Source of the DNA: a virus
IMG/VR virus record: IMGVR_UViG_3300037560_000117
Location: 1 to 59,921 of that record
Direction: 5' to 3' (one strand)
Length of the DNA: 59,921 bases
Positions 27,062 through 43,253 of this stretch are shown piece by piece. The notes under the pieces are model-generated. The model made no database searches and was not told the origin of the DNA. It was given only the letters and a program-made list of their open reading frames with translations. Position numbers and translations under genes: made by a program. The first letter of the stretch is position 1. Each line of letters starts with the position of its first letter.

Positions 27062-27406
27062 TTAGTAAGTGACACACCACATACGGATGCCACGTTTAAT
27101 TGCTAGTCTTGCCATGTGCTGTGTGCCCTTGGACTTACCGTCCCAGAACAGGAGTACAGCATCACATTTGAGTAACATGTCTTCATTGCGCACAAATCCG
27201 GCCGCATTGCCGAACTCTTCCCAGTCGGCGGGCATCTGGATCAATTCAAGGCCGTGTTCTCTGGCGTACCGTTCTCCGAGTCTGTCGGCACCTCTGGCAC
27301 AACCCGATATGATGATTGGCTTGACACCCGCACAAAACTGGCGCACCTTGGCTTTCAACAGGGAATAGTCGGTGAAGTCTCTACTGCCCGCTATGATCAG
27401 CTTCAT
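27062..27406 (-). CDS. SLOG/DUF2493-type protein
   Basis: 114 aa from ATG at 27406. MKLIIAGSRDFTDY at the N-terminus and IIISGCARGADRLGERYA in the middle are the DUF2493 (SLOG superfamily, YspA-like) signatures: a Rossmann-like nucleotide-ligand binding fold with the GSR-F and SG-ARGAD motifs. The C-terminal half (CDAVLLFWDGKSKGTQHMARLA) completes it. Family members bind nucleotide-derived ligands; substrate unknown here. Confidence 0.88.
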   Translation of the reverse strand: MKLIIAGSRDFTDYSLLKAKVRQFCAGVKPIIISGCARGADRLGERYAREHGLELIQMPADWEEFGNAAGFVRNEDMLLKCDAVLLFWDGKSKGTQHMARLAIKRGIRMWCVTY

Positions 27407-27534
27407 CGCTCGGCCTCGGTATAACCGCAACGTGAACAATAATCGTAATAAGGCGCACATCCGCAGAGCGGACATTCGGGTGGTTCGGTTGGGTCAGGTG
27501 TCTGGACGACCCACTCGATCTTGGTTATTCGCAT
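27403..27534 (-). CDS. 43-aa zinc-ribbon peptide
   Basis: ATG at 27534 after GGAG (7-nt spacer). It carries CPLCGCAPYYDYCSRCGY, a compact zinc ribbon, and its stop overlaps the SLOG start (ATGA). A longer upstream frame overlaps another small gene and is less likely. Confidence 0.7.
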   Translation of the reverse strand: MRITKIEWVVQTPDPTEPPECPLCGCAPYYDYCSRCGYTEAER

Positions 27535-27641
27535 GACGGTACTCCGCACAGCGAGCATACTACGGCGGCAATACCCGTCGCCACAATAATAATACCGAAT
27601 CCCACGCACAATGAAATGAAATCCCAACATAACTTTTTCAT
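27525..27641 (-). CDS. 38-aa membrane peptide
   Basis: ATG at 27641 overlaps the sigma-factor TGA (ATGA). One transmembrane helix (FISLCVGFGIIIVATGIAAVV) followed by CSLCGVPSCE, a short Cys cluster. Coupled to both neighbours. Confidence 0.65.
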   Translation of the reverse strand: MKKLCWDFISLCVGFGIIIVATGIAAVVCSLCGVPSCE

Positions 27642-28210
27642 AATGACTCCTTAATCCACGTGCGCCAGTCACGCAACCAGAGTGTGACAGTGCTTTTGGC
27701 AACGCTGTGTTTTTCGGCTACCTGTTCCATGGTTAATCCGTACAACAGATCGGCGATTAAGTCGTACGCGGTAACTTCGAGTAGTTCATCACACACGTAC
27801 ATCTCGGCTAACTCTAACGCCTGCTCGATGCGTGTGACGTTGGGGTTGTCCGTTATCTCTCCCCACTTCCGGAACGCGATCTTGTCGAGTTCTGGGTGGT
27901 CACCGGAGAAGCCGTCGCCGGTGATGATGATCGACTGCTCCATAGTTGGTGTGCGCCCCGATTTGCGCATGTGGTCAATTGCCATATCGCGGGCGATTTT
28001 AGCACAGAAGCCTCTGGGCGTCCGTACGGTCGATAGGTCGCGGTCCGATTCTAATAGCCGCAGGTAAATGTCCTGCCGTGCGTCTTCACAGTCATCGGGC
28101 TTCACACCATAGAGGCGTAAGCATCGCAACAGGTAGTCGCCGTATCCCGCATGTAGATTATGCACATTGAGCATCTTCTGCTCATTCACGTGCGATTTTT
28201 TAGTTGTCAT
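27638..28210 (-). CDS. ECF-like sigma factor
   Basis: 190 aa. Region 2 is visible: CEDARQDIYLRLLESDRD (core-binding, 'EDl.QevFlrl') and TPRGFCAKIARDMAIDHMRK ('w.....Ar....d..R'). Region 4 is AYDLIADLLYGLTMEQVAEK then HSVAKSTVTLWLRDW, a helix-turn-helix. Region 3 is absent, as in ECF sigma factors. A phage-encoded sigma would redirect host RNA polymerase, likely to late promoters. The long stretch between regions (residues ~85-130) is atypical, and a non-sigma HTH regulator remains possible. Confidence 0.75.
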   Translation of the reverse strand: MTTKKSHVNEQKMLNVHNLHAGYGDYLLRCLRLYGVKPDDCEDARQDIYLRLLESDRDLSTVRTPRGFCAKIARDMAIDHMRKSGRTPTMEQSIIITGDGFSGDHPELDKIAFRKWGEITDNPNVTRIEQALELAEMYVCDELLEVTAYDLIADLLYGLTMEQVAEKHSVAKSTVTLWLRDWRTWIKESL

Positions 28211-28436
28211 TTGATCCCACCAATCCCAGCTTTATGAGGAAGCAGTACCACCACGTCCGGCACGTTGCTTGGCTGTACAACATGTATGAGCTATCGCCTC
28301 GCGGTACCCACGTCACACTCACACCCCCAACAGGTCTCCACCCATAGCCCATGGCGGAATTTACCTGATTGGCTAGGTCGGTTTCATTGCTTGAGTCTAG
28401 TACCATGTACGATTTCATCAGCTTTCTAATTGTCAT
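28200..28436 (-). CDS. DUF1737-like protein
   Basis: 78 aa from ATG at 28436. SYMVLDSSNETDLANQVNSA followed by MGYGWRPVGGVSVTW matches the DUF1737 pattern ('y.vv.....eL...VN..l..GW.p.GG..v'). Overlaps the sigma gene by 11 nt. Role unknown; the family is common in phages. Confidence 0.78.
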   Translation of the reverse strand: MTIRKLMKSYMVLDSSNETDLANQVNSAMGYGWRPVGGVSVTWVPRGDSSYMLYSQATCRTWWYCFLIKLGLVGSNDN

Positions 28437-28548
28437 ATGCGAACCTATGCCTCCTGTGTACAAACCACGCTGGATTAATATACACCAGTAAAAATTGCGA
28501 TGCCATCCATGTGAACTTCAAATACGATTCCACACGATCTATGATCAT
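28426..28548 (-). CDS. 40-aa peptide, possible membrane association
   Basis: ATG at 28548 overlaps the TGA of the Cys-rich gene (ATGA); stop TAG lies inside the next gene. Aromatic, hydrophobic centre (LKFTWMASQFLLVYINPAWF) and basic end. Translational coupling supports it, but it has no recognised homologue. Confidence 0.55.
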   Translation of the reverse strand: MIIDRVESYLKFTWMASQFLLVYINPAWFVHRRHRFAYDN

Positions 28549-29093
28549 AATTGATCCCCTTTCTTTACATCGCGCACACTGGGGTGAGTGTATGCGTCGC
28601 AATTTTGAGCGTGGATACCTGCATGCTTGTGGGCTTCACACGTACACTTTAATACCGATCCTTCACTGCGATAAAGCAGGCTGGGACAGAACGGTTCGTG
28701 TATACCCTTCATGCGATCCACTATGGGACAATTACATTTTGGTTCCGACTTCGGACACACACACGGATTGCCTTTGCAGGCGCAATCCCACGAGTGCGGT
28801 TTGGCTCTTCCCCCAGATAGGCCCTTGAATTCGCCATACGGGCAACCTACGTGGTGCAGTGGGGCGAGACGCGGTTTCTTGTCTGCACAGTCACACGGCG
28901 GGACTAGAAGTTGGAGGCCTTCGAGTTCGGTGCTGTCAGTCGCCTCGATGGTCATGTTGTATGTCTCCTGTGTACGTGGTCGGCTGAGGTAGCGATTTAG
29001 CCACTTGCCCCATGCGACGAGTGTGACGTGCATGAACATCGACATCCAGATCAGTGCGACAGCGAGTATAAGTTCTTGTGGTGTTGCGTTCAT
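28545..29093 (-). CDS. Membrane-anchored Cys-rich protein with CxC-HxxxC repeats
   Basis: 182 aa from ATG at 29093 (AAAGGAAAATAAA). An N-terminal transmembrane helix (LILAVALIWMSMFMHVTLVA) is followed by repeated metal-binding-like units of form CxC-x(n)-H-x3-C: CDCADKKPRLAPLHHVGC, CNCPIVDRMKGIHEPFC and CTCEAHKHAGIHAQNC, plus CACKGNPCVC. Each unit could bind one Zn ion. The neighbour at 29095-29304 has two more units. I do not recognise this as a named family. Confidence 0.75.
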   Translation of the reverse strand: MNATPQELILAVALIWMSMFMHVTLVAWGKWLNRYLSRPRTQETYNMTIEATDSTELEGLQLLVPPCDCADKKPRLAPLHHVGCPYGEFKGLSGGRAKPHSWDCACKGNPCVCPKSEPKCNCPIVDRMKGIHEPFCPSLLYRSEGSVLKCTCEAHKHAGIHAQNCDAYTHPSVRDVKKGDQL

Positions 29094-29094
29094 T

Positions 29095-29304
29095 TTATTT
29101 TCCTTTTCTATATCGACATTTAGATTGGTGTGTGGTAGGGTCTGCTTTACCCCACTCGCTACCCCAGTGATCTTTATCACACGTACACGCAAGATTACAA
29201 ATATGAAGACTGCACTTTTCTTTATGTACGCCATCCCAACCACTATCACATGTACATGAGTACGTACATACGGGCTTAAAAGGATCGTCGTATTTTCGTG
29301 TCAT
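29095..29304 (-). CDS. Small protein with two CxC-HxxxC repeats
   Basis: 69 aa from ATG at 29304, which overlaps the MazG-like gene's TGA (ATGA). Units CTCDSGWDGVHKEKC and CTCDKDHWGSEWGKAD...HQSKC match the pattern in the next gene. Lacks a membrane helix. Likely a soluble zinc-binding partner or paralogue. Confidence 0.72.
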   Translation of the reverse strand: MTRKYDDPFKPVCTYSCTCDSGWDGVHKEKCSLHICNLACTCDKDHWGSEWGKADPTTHQSKCRYRKGK

Positions 29305-29870
29305 TGTGGTGGGTCCCATGGACCGCCACTATTAACAGGGCCTCTGTCCTGTGTGAATTCACGTTTACCAACTTCGGCCCACGCATCGATTATACAACTC
29401 TCAAGGCTAATGCGCGATCTCTTGCAGAAATCCGCAAGAAAGATAGTAATATCGCCTACCGCATCGCGCATTTTAGCTTTGTAGTCGATGTCCGGTTCAC
29501 GACTTCCCATTTGACTTTTAAGTACAGCGTGCGATAACTCCCCTAGTTCCTCTATCAAACCAAGTACAGTGAGAGTAGGGGTCGAGTTAGGGAAATTGCG
29601 ATCACTCCACACCCCGACTTCATTTTGAAACCGTACCAGATCAAGTCTGCCCGTTGTCGCATTGTTGAGTTCACTGACATTCACTTTAGTTTCAATAGAC
29701 ACAACTTCGTCCATCGGTATCGAATCCCAGACTTCACCTTCATCGGTTGTATATTTGATTTCATAATACGCGCCATTTACACCGTGCGCTTTTATATTAT
29801 TGTATGTGAATCGCGAATTAGGTTTGTCGGCTCCACTCTTGTTTATCATTGTCAGTATTAGTTTATTCAT
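29301..29870 (-). CDS. MazG-like nucleotide pyrophosphohydrolase
   Basis: 189 aa. The C-terminal ~110 residues carry the MazG/DUF550-type all-helical fold: LDLVRFQNEVGVWSDRNF, LGLIEELGELSHAVLK (metal-binding EExxE-like) and MRDAVGDITIFLADFCKR (second acidic pair), ending WAEVGKREF. The N-terminal ~75 residues are an extra domain. MazG proteins hydrolyse (d)NTPs to monophosphates. In Z-genome phages a MazG-type enzyme (MazZ) supplies dGMP to PurZ, which is encoded 4 kb away here. Activity on dGTP is inference. Confidence 0.8.
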   Translation of the reverse strand: MNKLILTMINKSGADKPNSRFTYNNIKAHGVNGAYYEIKYTTDEGEVWDSIPMDEVVSIETKVNVSELNNATTGRLDLVRFQNEVGVWSDRNFPNSTPTLTVLGLIEELGELSHAVLKSQMGSREPDIDYKAKMRDAVGDITIFLADFCKRSRISLESCIIDAWAEVGKREFTQDRGPVNSGGPWDPPQ

Positions 29871-30375
29871 TGTGTCCTTTCGACGGCCACTCTGGAAGGA
29901 ATGATGCCGTGTATGTTAGTTCTTTGGCTAAGCTGAAATCGACAGTGTACCCTTGACCATGGCATCGTCTTTCACAGATGCGAGTCTCCTGTATGATATA
30001 TTGCAGACATTGTTGGTCACTCCAGCCGTTAATATCACGTAGATGTTCGATCATTCGTTGTATATATCGAGGTGAGGCGGATTTTGCAGTCTGCCAGTAA
30101 TGCGCAATACGATGGCACAAAGGACAAAGTGCGATAACACTTGCGAGTCTTTGTATTTTCTTAGTGTCGTCATATTCGTATTGCTCATGCGCCTCCACAG
30201 GCCATTTTTCCCCGACACCGCCGCATACCTCACATTGATAGTTGGCTTGTTGGTACACGTACCGAGTAATACGCTTCCACAGATAAACCGGAATGTACTT
30301 TCCGTCATTACTGGACAACCGCTCGCCATGGAGAGACGTTGGCACCAACATGAGTGGCAATTTACTGGTTATCAT
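29863..30375 (-). CDS. HNH-type nuclease domain protein
   Basis: 170 aa from ATG at 30375 (AGGTG upstream). YQCEVCGGVGEKWPVEAHEQ followed by LASVIALCPLCHRIAHYW is an HNH-like treble clef: CxxC, the EAHE/H element in place of the DHI strand, then CxxCH...H. Found in free-standing phage HNH proteins. Could be a homing nuclease or a DNA-processing enzyme; it lies inside the replication block rather than next to the terminase. Confidence 0.78.
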   Translation of the reverse strand: MITSKLPLMLVPTSLHGERLSSNDGKYIPVYLWKRITRYVYQQANYQCEVCGGVGEKWPVEAHEQYEYDDTKKIQRLASVIALCPLCHRIAHYWQTAKSASPRYIQRMIEHLRDINGWSDQQCLQYIIQETRICERRCHGQGYTVDFSLAKELTYTASFLPEWPSKGHNE

Positions 30376-30377
30376 TG

Positions 30378-30983
30378 TCACACACCTAATTTTATCAATT
30401 TCAGGGATCGCATACAACCCACAACGTACTCGGCCTGTGTCATTGCATCGTGGAGCGCATTATGAGGGGTACGACCTGTACGCTCGCAGGTGCTGTTATT
30501 ACGTTTCATTGTGCCATAGTTAGGGAATACATCCTGTACCTGTTGTCCCATTAAACGCAAGGCTCGCATACAACACTCGGCTTTACGATGCCACGGTACA
30601 GAAAATCCGCACGAAAGAAAAGCATGGCGTAATATTCGAAAATCGAATGTCGCACCGTTAACCCAGATGCTGTGCCCTTTTTTACGGGTCGGTACGTTGT
30701 GTTGTTCGAGATAACATCCGAGGTCGTTAAGTGCGCCTAGTAACGTCACATCAAATTCCTGTGGTTGTAGTTCGGCCCGTGCTTTATCACTCTGTGCCGT
30801 CCACCACCGCACGGTTTCAGGGTCCATACTCCTATTGCGTTGTGTTTCGCAATCAATCGGTATTGTGCGATAGAATTCGGTATCCTTAACAATACCCTCC
30901 TGTGTGAAACCTATTGCGCCAATAGCGACGATTTTCGCATCGTCCTGTCCACCCATAGTTTCAATGTCAATCATTATATTCAT
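30378..30983 (-). CDS. DEDDh 3'-5' exonuclease
   Basis: 201 aa. Exo I MIDIETMG near residue 5, Exo II VNGATFDFRILRHAF, Exo III HNALHDAMTQAEYV: a DEDDh exonuclease. The sequence FYRTIPIDCETQRNRSMDPETVRWW resembles the Rv2179c-like phage 3'-5' exonuclease/exoribonuclease family. Adjacent to the primase-helicase operon, so likely used in DNA or RNA turnover during replication. Confidence 0.87.
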   Translation of the reverse strand: MNIMIDIETMGGQDDAKIVAIGAIGFTQEGIVKDTEFYRTIPIDCETQRNRSMDPETVRWWTAQSDKARAELQPQEFDVTLLGALNDLGCYLEQHNVPTRKKGHSIWVNGATFDFRILRHAFLSCGFSVPWHRKAECCMRALRLMGQQVQDVFPNYGTMKRNNSTCERTGRTPHNALHDAMTQAEYVVGCMRSLKLIKLGV

Positions 30984-31687
30984 TATTCATCATCCTCATT
31001 TGCTTCGTCGGACGTCACATCAGCCGACTCCGCTTCTTCTATGGCATTTAGTTTATTAGTGATCTCACGGATCACCGCATCTCGAAGTTGTTCTAGCTCT
31101 ATCATACTCAGTGCGGTCATATCGAGGTTGTGAAGACCGCCGATCTCTTCGCGATATACCAATATCAACTCTGACACGTACTCGCTGTTTATTACCACGC
31201 TCTTTGGATTGGCTAGTAGAATGCGAGTTCCGCTTGCCGAGAGTGCTTTCCGGTCGGCGTCCGCGTGGACTTCCTTTCGGATTTGTTCGTACAAGCCACG
31301 TAGCTGTGCGACCAAAGCTGCAAGCGTGCCTGTGGTGTCCTTCTCGTATGTGTTATCGTCGATCTGCTTTGTGACCTTATCCACTAAATCCGAGATGCCT
31401 TGTAGTCGGGCTTTATCCTCGGCCCACCGAATCGCACCAGTCTCAAGTTGCCATTCATGGTGCGCATGCGCAACCGTATCTTTTGGTACACGTGCACACC
31501 GCATCCGGAATTGGTCGTAATTGTGGACTATAGGGTCCAAGGGTGGAATACCGCTTGACTCTTTCTCAAAGTCAGGTCCGGTTACCTTAATCCAGATGTC
31601 TTTGTAAGGTATCCACTGTGCGAGTTGTCCGATAATGTACAACCGCATTGACTTTGACCATTTAGGGGCTATTGTATTTTTGCCCAT
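30983..31687 (-). CDS. Unknown protein with N-terminal HTH-like region (possible small terminase)
   Basis: 234 aa. Begins basic with SKSMRLYIIGQLAQWIPYKD, which could be a helix-turn-helix, followed by long charged helices (IRWAEDKARLQGISDLVDKV, LAALVAQLRGLYEQIRKEV) and an acidic tail (ADVTSDEANEDDE). The overall plan resembles some small terminase subunits, but the gene is next to the primase-helicase and far from the large subunit. Not assigned with confidence. Confidence 0.65.
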   Translation of the reverse strand: MGKNTIAPKWSKSMRLYIIGQLAQWIPYKDIWIKVTGPDFEKESSGIPPLDPIVHNYDQFRMRCARVPKDTVAHAHHEWQLETGAIRWAEDKARLQGISDLVDKVTKQIDDNTYEKDTTGTLAALVAQLRGLYEQIRKEVHADADRKALSASGTRILLANPKSVVINSEYVSELILVYREEIGGLHNLDMTALSMIELEQLRDAVIREITNKLNAIEEAESADVTSDEANEDDE

Positions 31688-33759
31688 TAGTTACCTCTTG
31701 TTAGATCAGATGCCTTAGCGGGCTGTGCGATCTTATATGTTAAACCAGAACCTACTACTTTGGTCCCCATACCAATTTCTCCGACTTTTCGGAGTTCGGA
31801 CAGTGCGCTTTTAAACGCACGCCCTTGGTCGGGGTCTTCTTTGAAATGGTCGCGGTACGCTTGTGCGCATTCGCTTCTCTCAAATGTATCACCATCGTGT
31901 GTTTTTACGAAATCACGGAGCCAATCAAGCACTATCTCGTTTTTCGACTTTTCGTCATGTTCGTTTTGCACTTTCGGGTCCCAATCTTTCACGTGCTTAT
32001 AACCTCGAACTTCGTCGATATAGTCAATCGCACAGTTATTACTTGAATTAACACGGCGACCGATAAAGGACAATTGCCGCCTATTTTCTTTACGAGCAGG
32101 TGTCATAGTGACAATCGCATCCACAGCGGATGTGATACCAATCGAGCCTGTTGATAGGCCGGTCGATTTGTTGGCGTGATGTAACCACACAATAGCAGTG
32201 TTAAGTGCAATGGCTAACGGTCGTAATTTGGATACGAGTTTTTGCCACTCCGCGCTTTCTGAACTATCGGGTATTTTACCGTTATTAATGATCGGAAAGA
32301 TCGAGTGAATCGAATCTAAAATCACAATATCCGGCTTTGCCTCTGCTATAAAGCTACCCAATTCGGACCACGATGTCGGTACATTCATATCCCCAGCAAT
32401 GATGCATTGATCGGAAAACTCACTACCTCCGGCTTTTGCGAAACGATATACGATGTCTTCGCATGGTTCGTCTGGTGAAATCCACAGGACACGGTAACCT
32501 TTACGTAAAGCGGCCACACACTCGAAAGTGCAGATGGTCGATTTACCGCTTAGTTTTTCACGCCCAACAAGTAATGTGATGCGCTTACGCCACGAAAACC
32601 ACTCACCGACAAGCTCTGGCATCGGTGGTGCATCGCCTCCGTCCAGTAATTCGGTCAGTGTGCGAGGACGGCGCACGAATACTTCATCGTCATCATCGGT
32701 GCCAATGTCACCGGACAATAATGCGTCAACGTCTATCTCTTCTATTGATTTGCGTCCCGCCTCTCGCGCCTCTTTTAACGAGGGGTGATGTGTCCCGAAA
32801 TCGTACCCTGCGCCGGTAAACGCCGATACAATCACACGGTCCACATCCGGTGAACTCAAGGGCGGGTCATTTAATTTATTCCATGTGAGCACTTTGGTTA
32901 GGGTATCGTCTTCGGAGAACCCTAACTTTCGACACTCGGAAGCCCGTAATAGGGCTTCATTGTCGCGGTCGCCTCGTGTGGCTCCACGTGCCAACAAGAT
33001 ATCTAAACTTGCCAGCATCATTTTTGCGCGACTATCCGACAGCGGAGGTGCGTCCCAGTTTGCGCTTTTTTCAATCGATCCCACACTGGTTTCATGGGAT
33101 AGTTTAACTAAGGACTCAACAGGGACAACGTTATCACACAACACGTAACCGCGATGGCCGCGATTCTTTGAGGACGATGCGATCTTTTTGATATCTTCGA
33201 TTGAAGATTCCATCGCAATGCCCATGTCTAATTGTGTCTTTCGCAGTTTGGTCTTGCTATGGTATGTGTTAGGCACACGCCACAGCCTGTTGTGATTATA
33301 TATCTTCGTGTCGATTTCTACGTGAAACAAGGACGCGATCTGGGTGCACGTATATCGCATTCGATCTGGGAGGTCTTGAGACGGCTCAAAGCCGAACACT
33401 CCCGAATCAATGCCAACGTGATACCCCTTCGATCCGGAGAAATAGACGATTGTTTCGTCAATCACTCCCATCGACTTAATCCCACGCAAGAGAGCTTGCA
33501 TATCAATCGTCGCATCCTGTAAATCAGATGCGTCAATATCAAACCAAAGATAATCGGACCAAACCTCAAACTTACTCGCCCCCCGCACACTACCTGTTGT
33601 ATCAACGTGCTTTTGGTATTCCTCGCGGAACCTAAACATCGTTGTGTACGTGTCGGTAGCGTCTTTGGGTATCGGTAGTTTGTCAAGTTTGACAACGTTG
33701 TTGCGCTTAGTTGCGCCTCCTACTGCCAGATCAACAAATGTGAATTCCGTATGTCTCAT
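31687..33759 (-). CDS. AEP primase-helicase fusion
   Basis: 690 aa. Residues ~1-230 resemble an archaeo-eukaryotic-type primase: YLWFDIDASD (catalytic D74/D76), YFSGSKGYHVGID, and RLWRVPNTYHSKTKL. A helical linker follows (RKLGFSEDDTLTKVLTWNKL, PriCT-like). Residues ~380-600 are a RecA/RepA-type ATPase: TLLVGREKLSGKSTIC (Walker A), PDIVILDSIHSIFP (Walker B) and NTAIVWLHHANKSTG. It would prime and unwind at the fork with the family A polymerase 3 kb away. Confidence 0.88.
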   Translation of the reverse strand: MRHTEFTFVDLAVGGATKRNNVVKLDKLPIPKDATDTYTTMFRFREEYQKHVDTTGSVRGASKFEVWSDYLWFDIDASDLQDATIDMQALLRGIKSMGVIDETIVYFSGSKGYHVGIDSGVFGFEPSQDLPDRMRYTCTQIASLFHVEIDTKIYNHNRLWRVPNTYHSKTKLRKTQLDMGIAMESSIEDIKKIASSSKNRGHRGYVLCDNVVPVESLVKLSHETSVGSIEKSANWDAPPLSDSRAKMMLASLDILLARGATRGDRDNEALLRASECRKLGFSEDDTLTKVLTWNKLNDPPLSSPDVDRVIVSAFTGAGYDFGTHHPSLKEAREAGRKSIEEIDVDALLSGDIGTDDDDEVFVRRPRTLTELLDGGDAPPMPELVGEWFSWRKRITLLVGREKLSGKSTICTFECVAALRKGYRVLWISPDEPCEDIVYRFAKAGGSEFSDQCIIAGDMNVPTSWSELGSFIAEAKPDIVILDSIHSIFPIINNGKIPDSSESAEWQKLVSKLRPLAIALNTAIVWLHHANKSTGLSTGSIGITSAVDAIVTMTPARKENRRQLSFIGRRVNSSNNCAIDYIDEVRGYKHVKDWDPKVQNEHDEKSKNEIVLDWLRDFVKTHDGDTFERSECAQAYRDHFKEDPDQGRAFKSALSELRKVGEIGMGTKVVGSGLTYKIAQPAKASDLTRGN

Positions 33760-33999
33760 TTACCATCTTTTTATTGTATAAGTGGGCAGTTGTATTTTAG
33801 GATAGTTGGCAACAAATAGCCATCCCATGCCGAGACAGTTAGAACACCGCGCTACAGGTGCGTCTATATTTCGACTGAGAACGTGTGGGAGCTTACCGGT
33901 ATTAGAAATTGTGCGAATCACGAGCTTGCGTTCTTCCACACTGAGTTCAATACCAAAACTCACACACCGCTTGCATATTTGGGTGCCGTATCTGATCAT
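33760..33999 (-). CDS. Small zinc-ribbon protein beside purZ
   Basis: 79 aa. Two Cys pairs, ICKRCVSFG and CSNCLGMGWL, separated by ~38 residues, a zinc-ribbon layout. Start ATG at 33999 overlaps the purZ stop (ATGA), so it is co-translated with purZ. Function unknown. Confidence 0.72.
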   Translation of the reverse strand: MIRYGTQICKRCVSFGIELSVEERKLVIRTISNTGKLPHVLSRNIDAPVARCSNCLGMGWLFVANYPKIQLPTYTIKRW

Positions 34000-35057
34000 T
34001 GTTGTCGTCTTATTACACTAAGTTTTGGACCGCCTGTGCCAACGAATGTGACAGGCAGGCCAGTTAACTTTTCAAGACTCGAAACAAAACCACGGCTTTT
34101 TTCGGATAGCCAATCATAGAGGTCTTGCCCTTCGTCGTCGGGGTTAACATAATCAATAAAAGTAAGTGCAATCTCAGTCGGCCCATGCAACAACACACAC
34201 TGTCTAGCCAATTCGTCATCCCACTTGCCGATGCGGCGTGTTTTTAAGGTAACAGTCGTTATCTCGGTAGTTTCACGTCCGAGACGTTTCGACATTTCCT
34301 CCCACGTCATTTCGTCCTTTAGCGGGCCGCTAGTGCCTGCCACACGAATCGGGAATGTGCGGAATACAGCGATAATGCGACCAATGTCTTTTAACGGAAT
34401 ACCGACATCAGCGCATAACTGAGCGGGGCCGGGGTCTGTGCTCGTGCAATGCGGCCATGGACCGTGGATCAATGACAGCCCTTGACCCTGTGCGCCTTCA
34501 AGTAATACCTTGTACCCGTGTGCGGTGCGTAACGCCTCTATGTAGGCGGGTGTATCTTCACGCTCAAATTGCGCAAACCACACATCCTCTTCGGCAAGGT
34601 CCCTGTATAGGCGGAATCGTTCAGGATCACGTGAAATCCGGGCTTCACGTGCGGGGCCGACACCCTCACCTGTCGAACCAATTCTGTCGTGCATTTCTCC
34701 GTGAATACCGCCCTCCATTTCGTGAAAGACAAGATCAAGAATACCGCACAACGGGTCAATCACCAGTCTGGTGTAAATGGACGGGTCAACCTCGGCAATG
34801 GCCTCAACTTCACGACGCAACAGTACAGGATCGATTAAACCACCACGACCGATAATTAACACGGCCTCAGGATTAGCCCATCCGCACGGTATTGTCTGCA
34901 TTTTCCACAGCCTATCGTACGCTATAAACGAATGACCCGCATTAGGTGCACCAACACGGATGTGGACGTCGTAGTCATCTGCAAGGTGTCCGGCTATTAC
35001 GCCTTTGCCCTCTGACCCGAACTGGCCACCGAATATAATATCAACTTTGGGTTTCAT
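33996..35057 (-). CDS. purZ: PurZ-type adenylosuccinate synthetase homologue (2-aminoadenine pathway)
   Basis: 353 aa, ATG after AAGGAGATACA. Clear PurA superfamily: P-loop FGGQFGSEGKGV, APNAGHSF with the catalytic-type His42, STGEGVGPAREARISR, LLEGAQGQGL, and KTRRIGKWDDEL. In PurA the P-loop reads GDEGKG with catalytic Asp; here Ser15 replaces it (GSEGKG), the substitution described for phage PurZ, which joins Asp to dGMP as a step toward dZTP. The nucleotide-specificity loop reads LTFIDYVNP instead of PurA TKLD, fitting non-GTP use. Short (353 versus ~430 aa), as phage PurZ is. Neighbours are a polymerase, a DUF5664 protein and a primase. Confidence 0.9.
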   Translation of the reverse strand: MKPKVDIIFGGQFGSEGKGVIAGHLADDYDVHIRVGAPNAGHSFIAYDRLWKMQTIPCGWANPEAVLIIGRGGLIDPVLLRREVEAIAEVDPSIYTRLVIDPLCGILDLVFHEMEGGIHGEMHDRIGSTGEGVGPAREARISRDPERFRLYRDLAEEDVWFAQFEREDTPAYIEALRTAHGYKVLLEGAQGQGLSLIHGPWPHCTSTDPGPAQLCADVGIPLKDIGRIIAVFRTFPIRVAGTSGPLKDEMTWEEMSKRLGRETTEITTVTLKTRRIGKWDDELARQCVLLHGPTEIALTFIDYVNPDDEGQDLYDWLSEKSRGFVSSLEKLTGLPVTFVGTGGPKLSVIRRQQ

Positions 35058-35066
35058 TGTATCTCC

Positions 35067-35447
35067 TTATGTCCAGTCACATTCGCCACAGTGGCAGTCC
35101 GGAAAGTTACACGCCTTGCTTTCGATGACGGCTGAGGGGATTGGGATAGTGGTGCCAACGGCCTCTGTGAACTGTGGTGCCGGTGTCGCATTCTTACGCA
35201 TTCTTGCGAGTTCTTCGTTGCGTGCCGTAGCTTTGAGGTTCATTCCGGCCAGAGTCTCGGCTTGATTGTCAATCTTCCTCTGCATGATGATCGTCTCTTG
35301 CCGGAGGTGATTGTTGCTCTTACGATATTTACGCACCTGATCACACAGCTCACCTATGCGTCTGATGTGCCAACAGGCTTGGTTCGGCAAAGCCGCCGTA
35401 CACGATCTACGTCGTCTTTTTGAACTTTGGGATTTTGTTTCTTTCAT
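35067..35447 (-). CDS. Coiled-coil protein with C-terminal Cys cluster
   Basis: 126 aa from ATG at 35447, overlapping the upstream TGA (ATGA). Basic N-terminus (SSKRRRRSC), a helical/coiled-coil middle (IGELCDQVRKYRKSNNHLRQ to ARNEELARMRKN) and C-terminal CNFPDCHCGECDWT, a probable metal site. Sits between purZ and the deoxyribosyltransferase-like gene. Function unknown. Confidence 0.7.
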   Translation of the reverse strand: MKETKSQSSKRRRRSCTAALPNQACWHIRRIGELCDQVRKYRKSNNHLRQETIIMQRKIDNQAETLAGMNLKATARNEELARMRKNATPAPQFTEAVGTTIPIPSAVIESKACNFPDCHCGECDWT

Positions 35448-36109
35448 ATTAAGTGATGTCCTTTCGCACGGCAATCGTCACAATCGCCTTGGTCAGTGCA
35501 ATTACCACAACGAGTTTTCGGTTGTGAGTCTTGGATTCCTTGACTACATGTACCATCACAGCCCGCACAATCAGCACAATCACAACCGCGACCATCAAGC
35601 GGTGTGGCTTCCTGCGCCATTGTCGGGTTATTATAGACTTCTTCTTCGACTAACTCTCCGTACCAATGTCCGATGTGAGTGGCCACTTTGAGCAGTGCTT
35701 CGTCGAGTGTTTCCCCAGCTTCTTCATCAATAAATACAACATGCGAACAAAGACCCCTGACCCAGAAATGTTTAGCGAGATACGCTTCATTAGTGATTAA
35801 AATGACGGGAGTGCGTTGCATCCAAGCGTACATAATCTCACAGGGCGTACCAAAACTGGCATCTTCACATTTCATCGACACAGCCAACATACAATGTGCA
35901 CGGTCGATATCTTGTAAGTCCCGGACTACTACCTCATTTGGCGATAGTGAGTCCCAAGATTGCATCGCGTATTTTGCTCTTAAGGGATCGAGGCTGTAGA
36001 TACCAAACTTAGCAAGGATAGGAGCAATAATCGCACGATACCCAGTTGCGCCATGTCCCAACTTAATTTTCCCCGCTAAGTAAATGTAGCGTTTGTTTGA
36101 AAAAGCCAT
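35444..36109 (-). CDS. Nucleoside deoxyribosyltransferase-like (DUF4406) protein with Cys-rich tail
   Basis: 221 aa. Residues 1-~165 follow the nucleoside 2-deoxyribosyltransferase plan: IYLAGKIK, VVVRDLQDIDRAHCMLAVSM and SFGTPCEIMYAWMQRTPVIL. The last ~45 residues form a Cys cluster (CDCADCAGCDGTC, CGNCTDQGDCDDC) not normal for the family. Such enzymes exchange or hydrolyse bases on deoxynucleosides or nucleotides. In this setting it may adjust the purine pool for Z-DNA. Activity not proven. Confidence 0.72.
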   Translation of the reverse strand: MAFSNKRYIYLAGKIKLGHGATGYRAIIAPILAKFGIYSLDPLRAKYAMQSWDSLSPNEVVVRDLQDIDRAHCMLAVSMKCEDASFGTPCEIMYAWMQRTPVILITNEAYLAKHFWVRGLCSHVVFIDEEAGETLDEALLKVATHIGHWYGELVEEEVYNNPTMAQEATPLDGRGCDCADCAGCDGTCSQGIQDSQPKTRCGNCTDQGDCDDCRAKGHHLI

Positions 36110-36110
36110 A

Positions 36111-36716
36111 TCAGCTTCCTTTCGGTGTTTCGTTTGGTCTGTCCCACCGGATAGGTGTGAACATCTTCTGTATTTGCTTCGGTTTAATTGTTTGTCGGTC
36201 GTCGTTGCCCTGTCCTGTGGTCACGTACTCCATGAGAAATAGGCAGTTGGCGATCACATGTGCGAGGTGGCTGACACCAGATTCGTCGTCGTCATTTTCA
36301 CCAAGGCTCCACTTGAGGAAGTGTCGCCAGATAGAGCCGATACAGCGCGAATAACTGAACCCTTCCTCCCAGTTGCGATCACCGTAAGTGAACGCTCCGA
36401 AAGTGAAGACCTGTGCGACGGCGGTTAACGGTCCGAGAGGCAAAAGATCGAATCGCACTTTCTGTTTTGGTGATCGTGCGGCGATGCCATCTTGCTTATT
36501 GGAAGTTGGACCACCGCCATCGACGGGTGTGCTCTTCCAGTTCTCAATTTCGTAGAACTCAGGTCGCACGGACCCTGACACCATATCAGCCAACATGCCG
36601 ATTTCTTCGACAAGCTCCTTATGTGCGAGAGCGTAGAGGCCCTGCTGTGTGTCAGCTTCTACCTCGTACTCGTACTCTTTGCGGTTCGCCATGAAGAATC
36701 GTACTTTAGCTTTCAT
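36111..36716 (-). CDS. DUF5664 dATP/dGTP diphosphohydrolase-like protein
   Basis: 201 aa from ATG at 36716. The core RFDLLPLGPLTAVAQVFTFG, followed by YGDRNWEEGFSYSR, IGSIWRHFLKW and SGVSHLAHVIANCLFLMEY, is the DUF5664 pattern. Related phage proteins are annotated dATP/dGTP diphosphohydrolase in the Z-genome pathway (from memory). Such an enzyme removes dATP and yields dGMP for PurZ. The N-terminal ~60 residues are an additional beta domain. It stands between the polymerase and purZ. No HD-type DatZ was found elsewhere, so this protein may do the dATP-clearing. Confidence 0.75.
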   Translation of the reverse strand: MKAKVRFFMANRKEYEYEVEADTQQGLYALAHKELVEEIGMLADMVSGSVRPEFYEIENWKSTPVDGGGPTSNKQDGIAARSPKQKVRFDLLPLGPLTAVAQVFTFGAFTYGDRNWEEGFSYSRCIGSIWRHFLKWSLGENDDDESGVSHLAHVIANCLFLMEYVTTGQGNDDRQTIKPKQIQKMFTPIRWDRPNETPKGS

Positions 36717-36969
36717 CCGTACTCTCCCTCTCCTTTTCAGTTTGTCGTTTCGCACTGTCTTTTAACTTCTCTTTGTAGTCTAACAATAGACCTGCAAGTG
36801 TGGCACGGATCGTGTTGTCCGGCTCACCAATCACACGCTGACCGGCTACTGTGTTGATGTACTGACTTATCGTGTATGCCGCGTCATCAATCAGCTTACC
36901 TGCGAGTTTTTGTAGTTCACCTTCGATGGCAGTTTGCGATATTGCGTCTGCCTGTTCACTGTTACCCAT
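36706..36969 (-). CDS. Unknown helical protein
   Basis: 87 aa from ATG at 36969 (GGAG, 6-nt spacer). Helical and charged: IEGELQKLAGKLIDDAAYTI, ATLAGLLLDYKEKLKDSAKR. The end overlaps the DUF5664 start by 11 nt. May act with the polymerase or the nucleotide enzymes; no family recognised. Confidence 0.7.
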   Translation of the reverse strand: MGNSEQADAISQTAIEGELQKLAGKLIDDAAYTISQYINTVAGQRVIGEPDNTIRATLAGLLLDYKEKLKDSAKRQTEKERESTDES

Positions 36970-36988
36970 TATAATCTCCAATCTAGAG

Positions 36989-39055
36989 TTAGTGGGCAAT
37001 TGCCCAATTAGCACCGGACCCGATATCGACAACAAGCGGGACCCACCCTTCGGCGAGTTGCTTGAATTCCATCGCTTCGCGAATCATCGGATAAAAATCA
37101 TTCGACATCTCCGGCGGGTGATCGAATAATAATTCATCATGCACTGTTAAAATCATCTTCACGTGTTTTCTTGTTGGACGATCTTTTTGAATGGCACGGT
37201 GCATTCGAACTAATGCTATTTTCATAATATCGGCCGCAGTTCCCTGTACCACATGTGATAGTCCTTGGCGTTCGGCCGCTAAAACGAGATTTCGACGTGC
37301 GACAGCGGCCACTTCTTCATACGTTTTGTTTCTAGTCCATGGTCGTTTCATTAAATTCTGTACCGTCTCTGCAACTATCTCGACCGAAGGACACACAGCA
37401 TCGGGAAGTGGACGCACACGACCAAAGAAGGTCACAGCCTCACCGTGTACCCGTATTTGACGTTTGATTTCATTGGCCCATCTGTTAAGAACTGGCAACG
37501 CCGCCCACCACTTATCGATAATATCTATACCGTCTTGTGCCGTAGGTAGTGTGTGTCGATTTCGAGCCGATAAAGTGTACCCTGAAATGCCGTTTAATAT
37601 CGAGAAATTAGCGATCTTGGAAATATCACGCATCCAAGATTCTACATTTTCTAGTGTCACATCATACATAGAACATGCAGTTTGAGCGTGTACATCAACA
37701 TTGCCCGCCATATAAGCGTCATATAGTACAGGCTCGTGGCACAATGACGCAGGGATACGCAATTCAATTTGCGAATAATCTGCCGCAGTTAGTATATTCC
37801 CTCTGCTTGGAATAAAGCACGTACGAAGTTGTGCAGGGTCACCGTCTTTGTGATCCTTACTCACACCCTGTAAGTTGGGATTAGAGCAGGAGAATCGACC
37901 GGACTTCGTACCTGTGGACCACAGTGAAGGATGGATGCGACCAGTTACCGGATCAGCTAACTTTGCAAGTTTGGTCTTTGTGAACGAATTACGACGTGAA
38001 TTTAGTTGGTTGTATCGCATAATAAGAGGTATAATGTCATGTTCACCTTCAATTTCAACCATCGCACGACTGTCGGTACTATATCCGGTATCTGTCTTGC
38101 GCGTGTGTGGCATGTGAAGTTCATCGAATAACAATATCTGCTTTTGTTTAAAGGACCCAAGATTCAGTCCTTTTTTCTTCGATAGTCGTTGTAATTCTTC
38201 GTTGTCGAAGCACACAGCACCTTCATCGTCTTTGTGAGTGGCACAATCACGTAAGGCCATTGTATGTACCTGTTCGCTACACTTCCCGCATTCGGTTTCG
38301 AGTATCTTGTCTATTTGTGCCACGATTTTTAGATCACATCCGATACCGTTTTTTTCCATCTCAATTACGGGCTGTATTACTTCATTTTCCAGTGTCCAAA
38401 TTTCACCCGCTTTTTCAACGGCCTTTTGTATAGACGGTAGCTGCCATAACATTAATGTGATATCAGCATCCTGACAACCGTAGATACGTTGTTGTTCCAG
38501 TGTCAACAACAAGAAATCAATTTCGTCTTTCTTAATTTTTTTGCCGAGGTTAGCTGAAATTATATCGATCATTTCAACAGTGGGCAGTGACAACCATTGT
38601 TCGGCCTGTGCTTTCAATCCGGCATTGCGCTTGTACCCGTTAATGTCGTGTAAGTGGCATGCGATCATCACATCCTTGACTCGTTCTTCCGGCACGTTAC
38701 ACCTATATTTGCGGATGATCGGTAAATCGTAACCCGCATTAAAGAATATGATGTCCTTGCCCTTTATTAGTTCTTTGAGTAACTTCATCCGTGGGTCCAT
38801 TTTTATCGGTACCCAATATGCGACGTGTGGCTCAAAAGCGAACGAATAACCATGACATTTAGCCACTCTTGTATTAAGGCTCGATGTCTCTGTATCGAGA
38901 GACATGAACGTCTTATCCGCATTGGCGCGAATTAGTCGTTCCAACTCCGGCGTTGTTACGGTAGTGTAAGTTGACATCGCATCCCACTGATCGAGAGTCG
39001 ATAGGATTGGATGCCCTCCTAAGCACTCAGTTTCGGTTTCTGTCTTTGATGACAC
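36989..39055 (-). CDS. Family A DNA polymerase with 3'-5' exonuclease (DpoZ candidate)
   Basis: 688 aa from GTG at 39055 (AAAGGA 9 nt upstream). Exonuclease motifs: FMSLDTETSSL (D54, E56), FFNAGYDLP (D110), YGCQDADIT. Polymerase motif A AADYSQIELR (D426), O-helix R476-K480-F484, motif C LTVHDELLF (H639-E641). The residue at the E. coli Tyr766 position is Asn488 (NFSILNG instead of NF..xYG), and the following Gly-Ile-Ser is kept. A polymerase of this family next to purZ is the DpoZ arrangement of known Z-phages. Whether the Asn affects A/Z choice is untested. Confidence 0.9.
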   Translation of the reverse strand: MSSKTETETECLGGHPILSTLDQWDAMSTYTTVTTPELERLIRANADKTFMSLDTETSSLNTRVAKCHGYSFAFEPHVAYWVPIKMDPRMKLLKELIKGKDIIFFNAGYDLPIIRKYRCNVPEERVKDVMIACHLHDINGYKRNAGLKAQAEQWLSLPTVEMIDIISANLGKKIKKDEIDFLLLTLEQQRIYGCQDADITLMLWQLPSIQKAVEKAGEIWTLENEVIQPVIEMEKNGIGCDLKIVAQIDKILETECGKCSEQVHTMALRDCATHKDDEGAVCFDNEELQRLSKKKGLNLGSFKQKQILLFDELHMPHTRKTDTGYSTDSRAMVEIEGEHDIIPLIMRYNQLNSRRNSFTKTKLAKLADPVTGRIHPSLWSTGTKSGRFSCSNPNLQGVSKDHKDGDPAQLRTCFIPSRGNILTAADYSQIELRIPASLCHEPVLYDAYMAGNVDVHAQTACSMYDVTLENVESWMRDISKIANFSILNGISGYTLSARNRHTLPTAQDGIDIIDKWWAALPVLNRWANEIKRQIRVHGEAVTFFGRVRPLPDAVCPSVEIVAETVQNLMKRPWTRNKTYEEVAAVARRNLVLAAERQGLSHVVQGTAADIMKIALVRMHRAIQKDRPTRKHVKMILTVHDELLFDHPPEMSNDFYPMIREAMEFKQLAEGWVPLVVDIGSGANWAIAH

Positions 39056-39533
39056 GATGCACCATCCTTTCTATGAATTGCATGTCCCAATGCGTGTATG
39101 CTCCTGTGCGCTGTGTACCAGTGCGACAGTTTTCGAATAACTCTTCAACGCGGACCGACTTTCTGCCGTCTTTTATTGCCATCCTAACAGCCGAGTTCCA
39201 CTGGGCAATGGGGATGATGTACACACACTTGTCTTTTGGTCCTTTGTATTTGGCGATCATCAACAGCCCGACTCCGCCTGCGACCTCGATGTCACACAGC
39301 GTAGCAACTTGACCGTCTCTCACACGCTTTATCGGAAAAGCGCGATCATCTTTTTTCAATTTCCATTCCATACCGATAAATATACCGTCGTAACACGCGA
39401 CCACATCCACTGCTCTACCACCAGTCACATCCCCGCCGAAAGTAGGGTCAGCGATCTTATGATACCATAACATACTAGGTTGCTGTCGATGCCAATTTTG
39501 CATCACTTGGCGTGTGATTGTAGTCTCATTCAC
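39027..39533 (-). CDS. VRR-NUC-type nuclease
   Basis: 168 aa from GTG at 39533 (GTGA overlap). PSMLWYHKIADPTFGGDVTG then GRAVDVVACYDGIFIGMEWK has the VRR-NUC/Holliday-resolvase-like layout: G-x-pDhhh-x(n)-E-x-K catalytic set. Lies just before the polymerase and overlaps it. Likely a structure-specific nuclease in replication or recombination. Confidence 0.82.
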   Translation of the reverse strand: MNETTITRQVMQNWHRQQPSMLWYHKIADPTFGGDVTGGRAVDVVACYDGIFIGMEWKLKKDDRAFPIKRVRDGQVATLCDIEVAGGVGLLMIAKYKGPKDKCVYIIPIAQWNSAVRMAIKDGRKSVRVEELFENCRTGTQRTGAYTHWDMQFIERMVHRVIKDRNRN

Positions 39534-39682
39534 TTTGAATCTTTCGTTATCTGCCTACTAATCATACGTGATATCGAAGACACCTCTTGTTCATGGGTCG
39601 AGTAGGTTCCTGAGGTTGTATCGGAGTTTCTTATATCCGTTATTCTATTTAAGATTCTCTCTGCTAACTTCTCATATTTCAT
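39530..39682 (-). CDS. 50-aa unknown protein
   Basis: ATG at 39682 overlaps the preceding TGA (ATGA), and the TGA overlaps the nuclease GTG (GTGA). Helical and charged: YEKLAERILNRITDIRNSD, HEQEVSSISRMISRQITK. Coupled on both sides, so probably real; unknown role. Confidence 0.68.
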   Translation of the reverse strand: MKYEKLAERILNRITDIRNSDTTSGTYSTHEQEVSSISRMISRQITKDSK

Positions 39683-39972
39683 AGGTTAAAACTCCATCCG
39701 GTCTTTATGAGGCTGGTGATATTAATGATAAAATGCGGGTGAATGGTAAAGTCTGACGAACTTTTAGATCGTGCGACAATCCCCAACTCGACCGCGATAT
39801 CGCGTTGTAGCTGTTGTAGTCTGTGTACTTCCTCAACTAAGTCTTCTTTCGATTTGTTTTTTAGTTGCGCCTTGGACGTCACCTCGTAGGTGTTGGCCCT
39901 CTGTACTGTATTAGGTAAACGAATCCGCTTTTCAGTTTTGGGTAAAGGTGCCCAACCATCGTCGCCTATCAT
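39679..39972 (-). CDS. Unknown protein with coiled-coil
   Basis: 97 aa. KSKEDLVEEVHRLQQLQRDI is a coiled-coil; the end is hydrophobic (HFIINITSLIKTGWSF). Overlaps the CgeB-like gene by 4 nt. No family recognised. Confidence 0.68.
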   Translation of the reverse strand: MIGDDGWAPLPKTEKRIRLPNTVQRANTYEVTSKAQLKNKSKEDLVEEVHRLQQLQRDIAVELGIVARSKSSSDFTIHPHFIINITSLIKTGWSFNL

Positions 39973-40949
39973 GATTTAACCCAACAACCGAATGCGCCTG
40001 TTTCAATTTCACCGGTGTTATCACGAATAGCCCTTAATACCTTCCAGTATTCTTTCACACGCTGTTCGAGTGTGTGGTATATCAGCACCTGTCGTTGACC
40101 ACTGCGAGCTATATACTCACGAAGTCGATCCTCTCTTAAATAAAAGTCGATTTTGGCACACATATCTTCGAATGTATTGTCGTGTGATACCAAGTCATCG
40201 CCTTCCTTGAATACCAAACCAAGGTCGGTGACAGGGTGATTCAGGAAGAATGCGCCACTGCCCATCGCATTGTATATGCGATTGCTGACGACATACGATC
40301 CACAGTTGGTGAATGCGGTGCGTTGTATATTGATCGCGATCTTGCTTTGTGCATACATCTGCGCCATTCGGTAACCACGCACCTCTCGACCACGGCGGAT
40401 AGCGTCACGAGAGAATGTGCAATTATATCGATCCCTTAGCTTATCGAGCCACTCGTTCCGGATGCCATCACACGACCCAATAAAGCACACATCGTAGATC
40501 GGCTTTGTCGGATCGAGTCGTGCGGGCAGATTACCTCGTGGCGAAGAACAGAAGCGATGGTCGAAATACTGAGGCATCCACAGCACTGTGGGAGCTAAGT
40601 GCTTGTATCGCTGTGCGGTTTCCTTAATCGAGAAGATCAGGACATCAGCGACGTTGGCCAGTTTAGTGCGCCACATGTAATCGCGGGTTCTCTCTGTCAT
40701 GTCTGGGTACCACAGGACAAGCTTGGCTCCGGTGTTTTTGATCGCTTGGTAGTACGAGCCGAAGGTTGGCCGTATGGCAAAGCAGAACACCACATCGGGC
40801 TTGTACTCTGCCAGTGCTATCATCGCCTCTTGTGGCTTCGTGCGACTTCCTGTTATCCGCACTTCGAGTCCTTGGCGTTGTGCTTCTCTGCCTAAGTGTG
40901 GTCCGGCGAATCGACCTTGGTGGCCACACGCCCATATTAGCACTTTCAT
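39969..40949 (-). CDS. CgeB-like glycosyltransferase
   Basis: 326 aa. GT-B type pattern of CgeB/Glyco_trans_1_2 proteins: LIWACGHQGRFAGPHLGREA at the start, LVLWYPDMTERTRDYMW, LWMPQYFDHRFC, DVCFIGSCDGIRNEWL, then SNRIYNAMGSGAFFLNHPVT and FKEGDDLVSHDNTFEDMCAK. Would transfer a sugar to an unknown acceptor. One of three glycosyltransferase-like genes here (with 42292-43200 and 52629-53303). Confidence 0.83.
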   Translation of the reverse strand: MKVLIWACGHQGRFAGPHLGREAQRQGLEVRITGSRTKPQEAMIALAEYKPDVVFCFAIRPTFGSYYQAIKNTGAKLVLWYPDMTERTRDYMWRTKLANVADVLIFSIKETAQRYKHLAPTVLWMPQYFDHRFCSSPRGNLPARLDPTKPIYDVCFIGSCDGIRNEWLDKLRDRYNCTFSRDAIRRGREVRGYRMAQMYAQSKIAINIQRTAFTNCGSYVVSNRIYNAMGSGAFFLNHPVTDLGLVFKEGDDLVSHDNTFEDMCAKIDFYLREDRLREYIARSGQRQVLIYHTLEQRVKEYWKVLRAIRDNTGEIETGAFGCWVKS

Positions 40950-40950
40950 T

Positions 40951-41505
40951 CTAGTCCCACCTTTCGGGTGAAATAGTGTCGAATTTGGCTATATTCTCAG
41001 CAGGGGCGTTATTCAGTGCTTTTGCTAAATCTCGAATGGTGCCAATACAGGGGATGTACCCTTGTTTCGCATACTTGAATGCCCGACGTAAACTGTCAAT
41101 CTCGTAACCTGCCTGTATCACATTCACCCCTAAATGTTTCCGTAGTGTGCTAGTGATCGCATTGGTAGTTGTAATGATCGACTTACCGTCCCACGCAAAC
41201 TGACAAAGTGTATAATCAAAACTCTCTATAGTTTTTTCAGCGTTGGCAAATAATGGCCGAAGTATGATCTGCACGGGACTACTATAAAACATAATCATCC
41301 GCGTATTCTGCACTCGTATATTTAGCCCATTCTCCGCTATAAAATTCTCGGCGGATGTAGTATCACGACAAAATACATCGATGTCATTACACAAAGGTTC
41401 ACCGGTAAACCAACGCCGCACAGCACCGCCTGCCACCCAAGTACCTTCGACTAACTTAACTGGCGGCTTAGTTCCTCGCATGTGCATTTCTAATAACTCG
41501 ATCAT
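40951..41505 (-). CDS. Nucleotidyltransferase-fold protein
   Basis: 184 aa. VAGGAVRRWFTGEPLCNDID followed by VFCRD is the pol-beta-type nucleotidyltransferase signature (GG-x-R...DxD-x-F) also seen in tRNA nucleotidyltransferase heads. The following ESFDYTLCQFAWDGKSI gives the third carboxylate position. Phage proteins of this type are usually called nucleotidyltransferase; substrate unknown. It might mend or modify the odd tRNAs of this phage, which is speculative. Confidence 0.8.
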   Translation of the reverse strand: MIELLEMHMRGTKPPVKLVEGTWVAGGAVRRWFTGEPLCNDIDVFCRDTTSAENFIAENGLNIRVQNTRMIMFYSSPVQIILRPLFANAEKTIESFDYTLCQFAWDGKSIITTTNAITSTLRKHLGVNVIQAGYEIDSLRRAFKYAKQGYIPCIGTIRDLAKALNNAPAENIAKFDTISPERWD

Positions 41506-41696
41506 TTGCAGGCCTCTTTCACTTCATCTGTGATGTCTTCGGTTGTGACCGTCTGTTTTGTGACTGTCACATCGAAGACGTCATCTTTCAATCCGGCGTA
41601 CCGCTCTTTGGCAGAGCCAAGGTCCGGACAGCTGTTGCCCGTTGTTGTACTCCCCATATACCTGCCGGTGACATAGTAGGTCGTGGTTGTATTCAT
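41502..41696 (-). CDS. Small Thr-rich protein
   Basis: 64 aa; the ATG at 41696 is coupled to the preceding TGA (ATGA). Thr/Val-rich, beta-like (TTTTYYVTGRYMGSTTTGNS), helical end. Unknown. Confidence 0.65.
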   Translation of the reverse strand: MNTTTTYYVTGRYMGSTTTGNSCPDLGSAKERYAGLKDDVFDVTVTKQTVTTEDITDEVKEACK

Positions 41697-43200: not shown

Positions 43201-43227
43201 GTGTGTTCTATTTCTCTTTTGTTTTAC

Positions 43228-43253
43228 AAGTCCGAAGCGATTAAACTTCGGAC
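43228..43253 (-). terminator. Hairpin after ssDNA-binding candidate gene
   Basis: Perfect 9-bp stem AGTCCGAAG/CTTCGGACT with 8-nt loop, followed by TTGTAAAAC on the minus strand. Lies between the 43277 stop and the 43200 start; probable weak terminator. Confidence 0.55.

What the first reader, a model, noticed from the sequence alone, without database searches (positions are those of the whole stretch)
29301..39055. Likely 2-aminoadenine (Z) genome: PurZ with Ser P-loop beside polymerase and nucleotide hydrolases
The protein at 33996-35057 is a PurA homologue in which the catalytic Asp of GDEGKG is Ser (GQFGSEGKG, Ser15). This is the hallmark of phage PurZ, the enzyme that ligates Asp to dGMP on the way to dZTP. 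The NAGH His, the STGxGVGPA loop and the RR of the Asp-binding loop are kept. Within 5 kb are a family A polymerase (DpoZ candidate) and a DUF5664 dATP/dGTP diphosphohydrolase-like protein; a MazG-like protein is 4 kb away. The set strongly suggests that A is replaced by Z in this genome. Family knowledge: PurZ/MazZ/DatZ/DpoZ of S-2L, phiVC8 and SH-Ab 15497-like phages.
Basis: partly seen in the sequence, partly recalled or inferred. Interest (0 to 1): 0.92.

Follow-up and report, generated by a model that had tools for sequence, protein, structure and literature searches.

The report
Third clade of phage PurZ enzymes
This uncultivated phage carries a new, deep branch of the enzyme that phages use to swap adenine for 2-aminoadenine (Z) in their DNA, beside genes that probably manage nucleotide pools, so its DNA probably contains Z, although its polymerase is not one of the known Z-selecting kinds.

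Summary
Minus-strand ORF 33996-35057 (353 aa) is an intact PurA-family protein with Ser15 in the P-loop.

In trees with PurA, PurZ, PurZ0 and bacterial homologues it falls in a well-supported clade, seen here only in uncultivated viruses, that is sister to PurZ0 (96/91). The dGMP-pocket residues match PurZ. Asp302 at the donor-base site matches PurA and PurZ0, so I predict GTP rather than ATP as phosphate donor. In 27 of 29 relatives purZ lies within 2.5 kb of a dUTPase-like, DUF5664 or NDT gene.

Three claims need correcting. Ser in the P-loop is not diagnostic: dozens of bacterial chromosomes carry it in a kinase-fused operon protein. The polymerase is not a known DpoZ; it clusters with ordinary Pol I. 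The MazG link to MazZ is weak.

The NDT protein resembles DmtZ in position and fold, but DmtZ's essential Asp12 is Lys here. Z in the DNA is probable; complete replacement of A is unproven without nucleoside mass spectrometry. New variant of a known kind.

The parts
33996..35057 (-). PurZ-like protein, 353 aa, third phage clade, Ser15 P-loop, Asp302 at the donor-base site
35444..36109 (-). NDT-family protein, 221 aa, in DmtZ-like position; Tyr10, Pro42, Asp64 and Glu91 kept, DmtZ Asp12 is Lys16; Cys-rich tail absent from L017
36111..36755 (-). DUF5664 (dATP/dGTP diphosphohydrolase, N-terminal) protein, no DUF550 partner domain detected
36989..39055 (-). Family A DNA polymerase with 3'-5' exonuclease domain; not in either known DpoZ group
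31687..33759 (-). Primase-helicase, order conserved next to purZ in L016 and L017
29301..29870 (-). MazG-like protein; role in the Z pathway unproven
39027..39533 (-). Holliday junction resolvase-like protein beside the polymerase, also in L017

Best explanation
The protein is a phage PurZ of a third, uncultivated clade, sister to PurZ0. It most likely ligates aspartate to dGMP, with GTP as phosphate donor, giving the succino intermediate dSMP. Host PurB and nucleotide kinases would turn this into dZTP, since no PurB was found in this genome. The DUF5664 protein would convert dATP and dGTP to monophosphates, making dGMP for PurZ and lowering dATP. The NDT-family protein would cleave a dNMP, most plausibly dAMP, so that dATP is not refilled. 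The polymerase would then place Z opposite T. Because the polymerase is not a known DpoZ, the choice of Z over A would rest mainly on the changed nucleotide pool, as proposed for S-2L. Shown here: family, clade, pocket residues, gene set and its conservation. Inferred: substrates, donor, fluxes, and Z in virion DNA.
For: Trees: window clade 100/99, sister to PurZ0 96/91, PurZ outside that, all Ser-P-loop proteins apart from PurA 100/98. Pocket: Ser15, Val239, Thr267 and the loop insertion after Val239 as in PurZ; Asp302 as in PurZ0 and PurA, invariant in 33 relatives (pocket residues from PMC8342488). Neighbourhood: 27 of 29 relatives have a dUTPase-like, DUF5664 or NDT gene within 2.5 kb of purZ, the classes shown to hydrolyse dATP and dGTP or cleave dAMP in PurZ0 phages (PMC12884076). 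Fold: pLDDT 95, matches PurA, PurZ0 and PurZ.
Against: NCBIfam scores archaeal PurA above PurZ, and the PurZ cut-off is not met. AU tests do not formally exclude grouping with PurA, the bacterial clade or PurZ proper (p 0.077, 0.092, 0.112). The polymerase is not DpoZ. No DatZ or dUTPase hit. The NDT protein lacks DmtZ's Asp12, whose changes to Ala or Arg abolish dAMP activity in Ghobes DmtZ.
Confidence: 0.7

Rival explanations
1. PurZ works as described, but Z replaces only part of the A, because the polymerase does not select Z and the pool enzymes do not clear dATP fully.
For: Polymerase outside the DpoZ groups; no DatZ-type, HD or dUTPase hit in a genome that looks complete.
Against: DUF5664 of phage Wayne hydrolyses dATP about ten times faster than dGTP (PMC12884076); S-2L replaces all A with a non-selective PrimPol plus dATP depletion (PMC8342488). 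L017 keeps the same four-gene block.
Confidence: 0.2
2. The protein is a Ser-P-loop PurA relative that does not serve Z-DNA, for example one with another nucleotide substrate, like the bacterial chromosomal clade.
For: A bacterial chromosomal clade has the same Ser, fused to a kinase domain, in an operon with no evident link to Z-DNA phages. DUF5664 genes also occur in many phages. AU p values for grouping with PurA or the bacterial clade are above 0.05.
Against: Best trees and bootstraps place it with PurZ0, inside the span of PurZ0 and PurZ, away from the bacterial clade. Tight linkage to pool enzymes. PurZ-type pocket and loop insertion.
Confidence: 0.1

Closest known systems
PurZ0 of Gordonia and Arthrobacter phages (PDB 7VF6; Ghobes, Wayne)
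   Same: Sister clade; Ser P-loop; Asp at the donor-base site; DUF5664 or dUTPase-like and NDT genes near purZ
   Different: About 31-34% identical; P-loop GSEGKG here, GSEAKG in the PurZ0 phages compared; no dUTPase in this genome; polymerase unrelated to DpoZ-1
PurZ of phiVC8, S-2L and Acinetobacter phages
   Same: Ser P-loop, dGMP-pocket residues, loop insertion after the conserved Val
   Different: P-loop GSTGKG there; Asn or Gln at the donor-base site (ATP); datZ/mazZ neighbours; separate clade (98/95)
Archaeal PurA (Pyrococcus horikoshii, 5K7X)
   Same: Closest solved fold and sequence score, short form, Asp at the donor-base site
   Different: GDEGKG with catalytic Asp; no PurZ-type loop insertion; other side of the 100/98 branch (representative archaeal row L221)
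Bacterial chromosomal Ser-P-loop clade (kinase-fused, beside IrrE/macro-domain and DUF7002 proteins)
   Same: Ser P-loop and PIRV motif; about 33-40% identical
   Different: Separate clade (100/100), fused kinase domain, chromosomal operon; function unknown
DmtZ (NDT family) of PurZ0 phages
   Same: NDT fold, near purZ, catalytic Tyr and Glu, Pro
   Different: No significant sequence similarity to Ghobes DmtZ beyond the family; Asp in place of Asn77; Asp12 is Lys

Membership tests
Phage PurZ/PurZ0 superfamily | Ser in place of the catalytic Asp of the PurA P-loop | tested here: met
   Ser15 in GQFGSEGKG; but also met by bacterial chromosomal proteins, so not sufficient
Phage PurZ/PurZ0 superfamily | Groups with PurZ and PurZ0, not with PurA | tested here: met
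   AU test against grouping with PurA is p 0.077, so not formally excluded
Phage PurZ/PurZ0 superfamily | dGMP-pocket residues and loop insertion that excludes the 2'-OH | tested here: met
   against residues named in PMC8342488
Phage PurZ/PurZ0 superfamily | Makes dSMP from dGMP and Asp | not testable with these tools
   Needs an enzyme assay
PurZ proper (ATP-using; S-2L, phiVC8) | Member of the PurZ clade and Asn/Gln at the donor-base site | tested here: not met
   Asp302; outside the PurZ clade; NCBIfam PurZ 217 bits, cut-off 300
PurZ0 (GTP-using) | Inside the PurZ0 clade | tested here: not met
   Sister clade to PurZ0, not inside it
PurZ0 (GTP-using) | GTP as phosphate donor | not testable with these tools
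   Predicted from Asp302 only
DpoZ | Groups with DpoZ-1 or DpoZ-2 polymerases | tested here: not met
   NCBIfam DpoZ 118 and 40 bits, cut-offs 500 and 350
DmtZ | NDT fold with catalytic Tyr and Glu, next to purZ | tested here: met
DmtZ | Asp12 required for dAMP activity | tested here: not met
   Lys16 at that position in the window and in L017
S-2L/phiVC8 Z-cluster | datZ beside purZ | tested here: not met
   No YfbR-like or HD hit in the genome
S-2L/phiVC8 Z-cluster | mazZ (MazZ-1, MazZ-2 or DUF550) beside purZ | tested here: inconclusive
   No DUF550 hit, but the control did not ring; MazG-like protein 4 kb away only weakly similar to S-2L MazZ; phiVC8-type MazZ-2 not compared

The most novel reading that the evidence does not exclude
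A third, separately assembled Z-DNA system: a GTP-type PurZ clade of uncultivated phages that pairs with DUF5664 and an NDT enzyme of altered specificity and, in this phage, replicates Z-DNA with an ordinary-type Pol I, so that base choice is set by the nucleotide pool. Most relatives instead carry a third polymerase lineage (20 rows, support 100) that could be a new kind of DpoZ.
Probability: 0.4. Interest if true: 0.62.

Novelty: new variant of a known kind. Interest (0 to 1): 0.5.

Why it matters
If true, phages that replace A with Z include a deep lineage absent from GenBank phage records (best match there about 36% identical), and Z replication need not involve a known DpoZ. It fits the published proposal that GTP use came before ATP use in PurZ evolution. 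It also sets a caution for genome surveys: Ser in the PurA P-loop alone does not identify a Z-DNA genome, because bacterial chromosomes carry the same change in a different operon.

Tried and rejected
DpoZ assignment of the polymerase: not supported by NCBIfam scores or tree. DatZ-type, HD and dUTPase genes in this genome: searched, none found. DUF550: none found, but the control did not ring. Phage PurB: none here. Ser alone as proof of Z-DNA: rejected. Ghobes gp51 was first taken as DmtZ; residue positions showed that DmtZ is gp53. A sequence search of the NDT protein against PDB chains gave nothing, GenBank phages gave nothing, and IMG/VR gave only the L017 contig. Megablast of 28000-48000 against GenBank phages found nothing. 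PADLOC found no match to PurZ, the NDT protein or DUF5664. Paper searches for DUF7002 found nothing.

Full report
Observation. The ORF at 33996-35057 lies on the minus strand, is intact, and codes for 353 aa with GGQFGSEGKG, NAGH, STGEGVGPA and RR as described. It matches Adenylsucc_synt at 165.5 bits, phrog_1211 at 220 bits, archaeal-type PurA at 254 bits and NCBIfam PurZ at 217 bits, below that model's cut-off of 300. Among solved structures the best sequence matches are Pyrococcus PurA (183 bits), phiVC8 PurZ (152) and PurZ0 (134). The predicted structure (pLDDT 95) matches Pyrococcus PurA, PurZ0 and phiVC8 PurZ best. The contig ends share 167 bases with one mismatch, so the genome is probably complete and absences in it carry some weight. 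Terminase, portal and head genes show a tailed phage.

Relatives. The best GenBank phage matches are about 36% identical (50,697 records). In IMG/VR there are relatives up to 72% identical. A scan of bacterial and archaeal genomes found many homologues, and nearly all of the 80 kept have Ser in the P-loop. Of 15 such genomes searched, 13 also have a separate full-length PurA; the two Nanoarchaeota bins do not.

Tree. A 163-row tree and a bootstrapped 59-row tree agree on the main groups. In the bootstrapped tree all Ser-P-loop proteins separate from PurA (100/98); the window clade is one group (100/99) and sister to PurZ0 (96/91); PurZ proper is separate (98/95, including Bacillus phage vB_BpsS-140); the bacterial chromosomal clade is separate (100/100) and outside the phage groups (90/90). 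The protein is thus inside the span of enzymes known to make the Z precursor, but in neither named group. AU tests with the window clade held together with PurA, with the bacterial clade, or with PurZ proper give p 0.077, 0.092 and 0.112, so those placements are disfavoured but not formally excluded.

Active site. Using the residues that the S-2L structure paper assigns to dGMP and donor binding (PMC8342488), the window has Ser15, Thr129, Arg143, Gln190, Cys204, Thr205, Arg238, Val239 and Thr267 like PurZ, and an insertion in the loop after Val239, which in PurZ brings that Val closer to C2'. Where ATP-using PurZ has Gln or Asn it has Asp302, as do PurA and PurZ0 and all 33 aligned relatives. 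GTP as donor is therefore the prediction; it is an inference from residues, not a measurement.

Gene neighbourhood. The order is polymerase, DUF5664, NDT-family protein, purZ, primase-helicase, and L017 keeps it. Of 29 relatives, 27 have a dUTPase-like, DUF5664 or NDT gene within 2.5 kb of purZ, most within 700 bases. One exception (L016) begins only 586 bases upstream of the purZ match. DUF5664 was found in 773 of 50,697 phage records by the window query but in 16 of 31 records of this set, so the linkage is well above background. In PurZ0 phages these classes were shown to hydrolyse dATP and dGTP (DutZ, DUF5664) and to cleave dAMP or move its sugar phosphate to Z base (DmtZ) (PMC12884076). 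The window DUF5664 protein is 41% identical over 90 aa to the characterised Wayne protein.

The NDT protein. The model (mean pLDDT 70, higher in the core) has the NDT fold, matching deoxyribosyltransferases, DNPH1 and MilB. Tyr10, Pro42, Asp64 and Glu91 align with catalytic or conserved positions; Asp64 stands for Asn77 of DmtZ. The Asp12 that Ghobes DmtZ needs is Lys in both the window and L017. It is DmtZ-like in place and fold, but its substrate is open.

The polymerase. It scores far below both NCBIfam DpoZ models. In a tree it pairs with L017 and sits among ordinary phage Pol I controls (support 89-90), away from DpoZ-1 and DpoZ-2. Nineteen polymerases of the window clade plus one more viral polymerase form a third separate group (support 100). 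The DpoZ claim is therefore not supported for this phage. Work on phiVC8 DpoZ found no single element that sets Z preference (PMC8599892), so a Z preference cannot be excluded from sequence.

Mechanism. Most likely DUF5664 yields dGMP and lowers dATP; PurZ makes dSMP with GTP; host PurB and kinases give dZTP (no PurB found in this genome); the NDT enzyme drains a dNMP, probably dAMP; and the polymerase uses what the pool offers. Only gene content, clade and residues are shown; every flux is inferred.

Verdict. This is a real and probably functional PurZ of a new clade with a PurZ0-like gene set. Z in the DNA is likely; complete replacement of A is less certain. Ser in the P-loop by itself is not proof, because a bacterial chromosomal operon has the same change.

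Noticed in passing
L103:6028-9044, L102:9038-9661 and the other bacterial loci among L100-L174: Bacterial chromosomal operon: an IrrE-type peptidase protein with a DarG-like macro domain, a P-loop kinase domain fused to a Ser-P-loop PurA-like domain, and a DUF7002 protein. Conserved in 37 of 59 and 50 of 59 loci for the flanking genes; only partial PADLOC matches such as capP and DarG; no paper on DUF7002 found. Possibly a defence or toxin-antitoxin system; function unknown.
   Followed up: partly
L018, L020-L022, L024-L029, L031, L033-L036, L095, L175, L176, L003: Polymerases of most window-clade relatives form a third family A group (support 100), apart from DpoZ-1, DpoZ-2 and the window's own polymerase: a candidate new Z polymerase lineage.
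   Followed up: partly
L006:5962-7083 (Bacillus phage vB_BpsS-140): This isolated phage has a Ser-P-loop protein (GSEGKG, Asn at the donor-base site) that groups with PurZ proper (98/95), so its DNA may contain Z.
   Followed up: no
L007:11480-12853; records of L048 and L022 (G092:23558-24385, G086:4222-5145): Some PurZ or PurZ0 relatives carry a PurB-like lyase family gene of their own, the step usually left to the host.
   Followed up: no
L041 and L175, P-loop: GSCGKG variants, with Cys in place of the Glu after Ser, in two viral PurZ-like proteins.
   Followed up: no
window 1-167 and 59755-59921: Direct terminal repeat of 167 bases with one mismatch, although the record is given no end repeats; a 914-aa open frame runs across the joined ends.
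   Followed up: yes
window 46568-47557, 27062-27475, 21100-21717, 27638-28210: PAPS reductase-like protein, YspA/SLOG-family protein, GroES-like co-chaperonin and a sigma-factor-like protein in the phage genome.
   Followed up: no
window 39969-40949, 52629-53303, 15406-16158, 18997-19605: Two glycosyltransferase-like and two methyltransferase-like proteins (FkbM type and class I), targets unknown.
   Followed up: no
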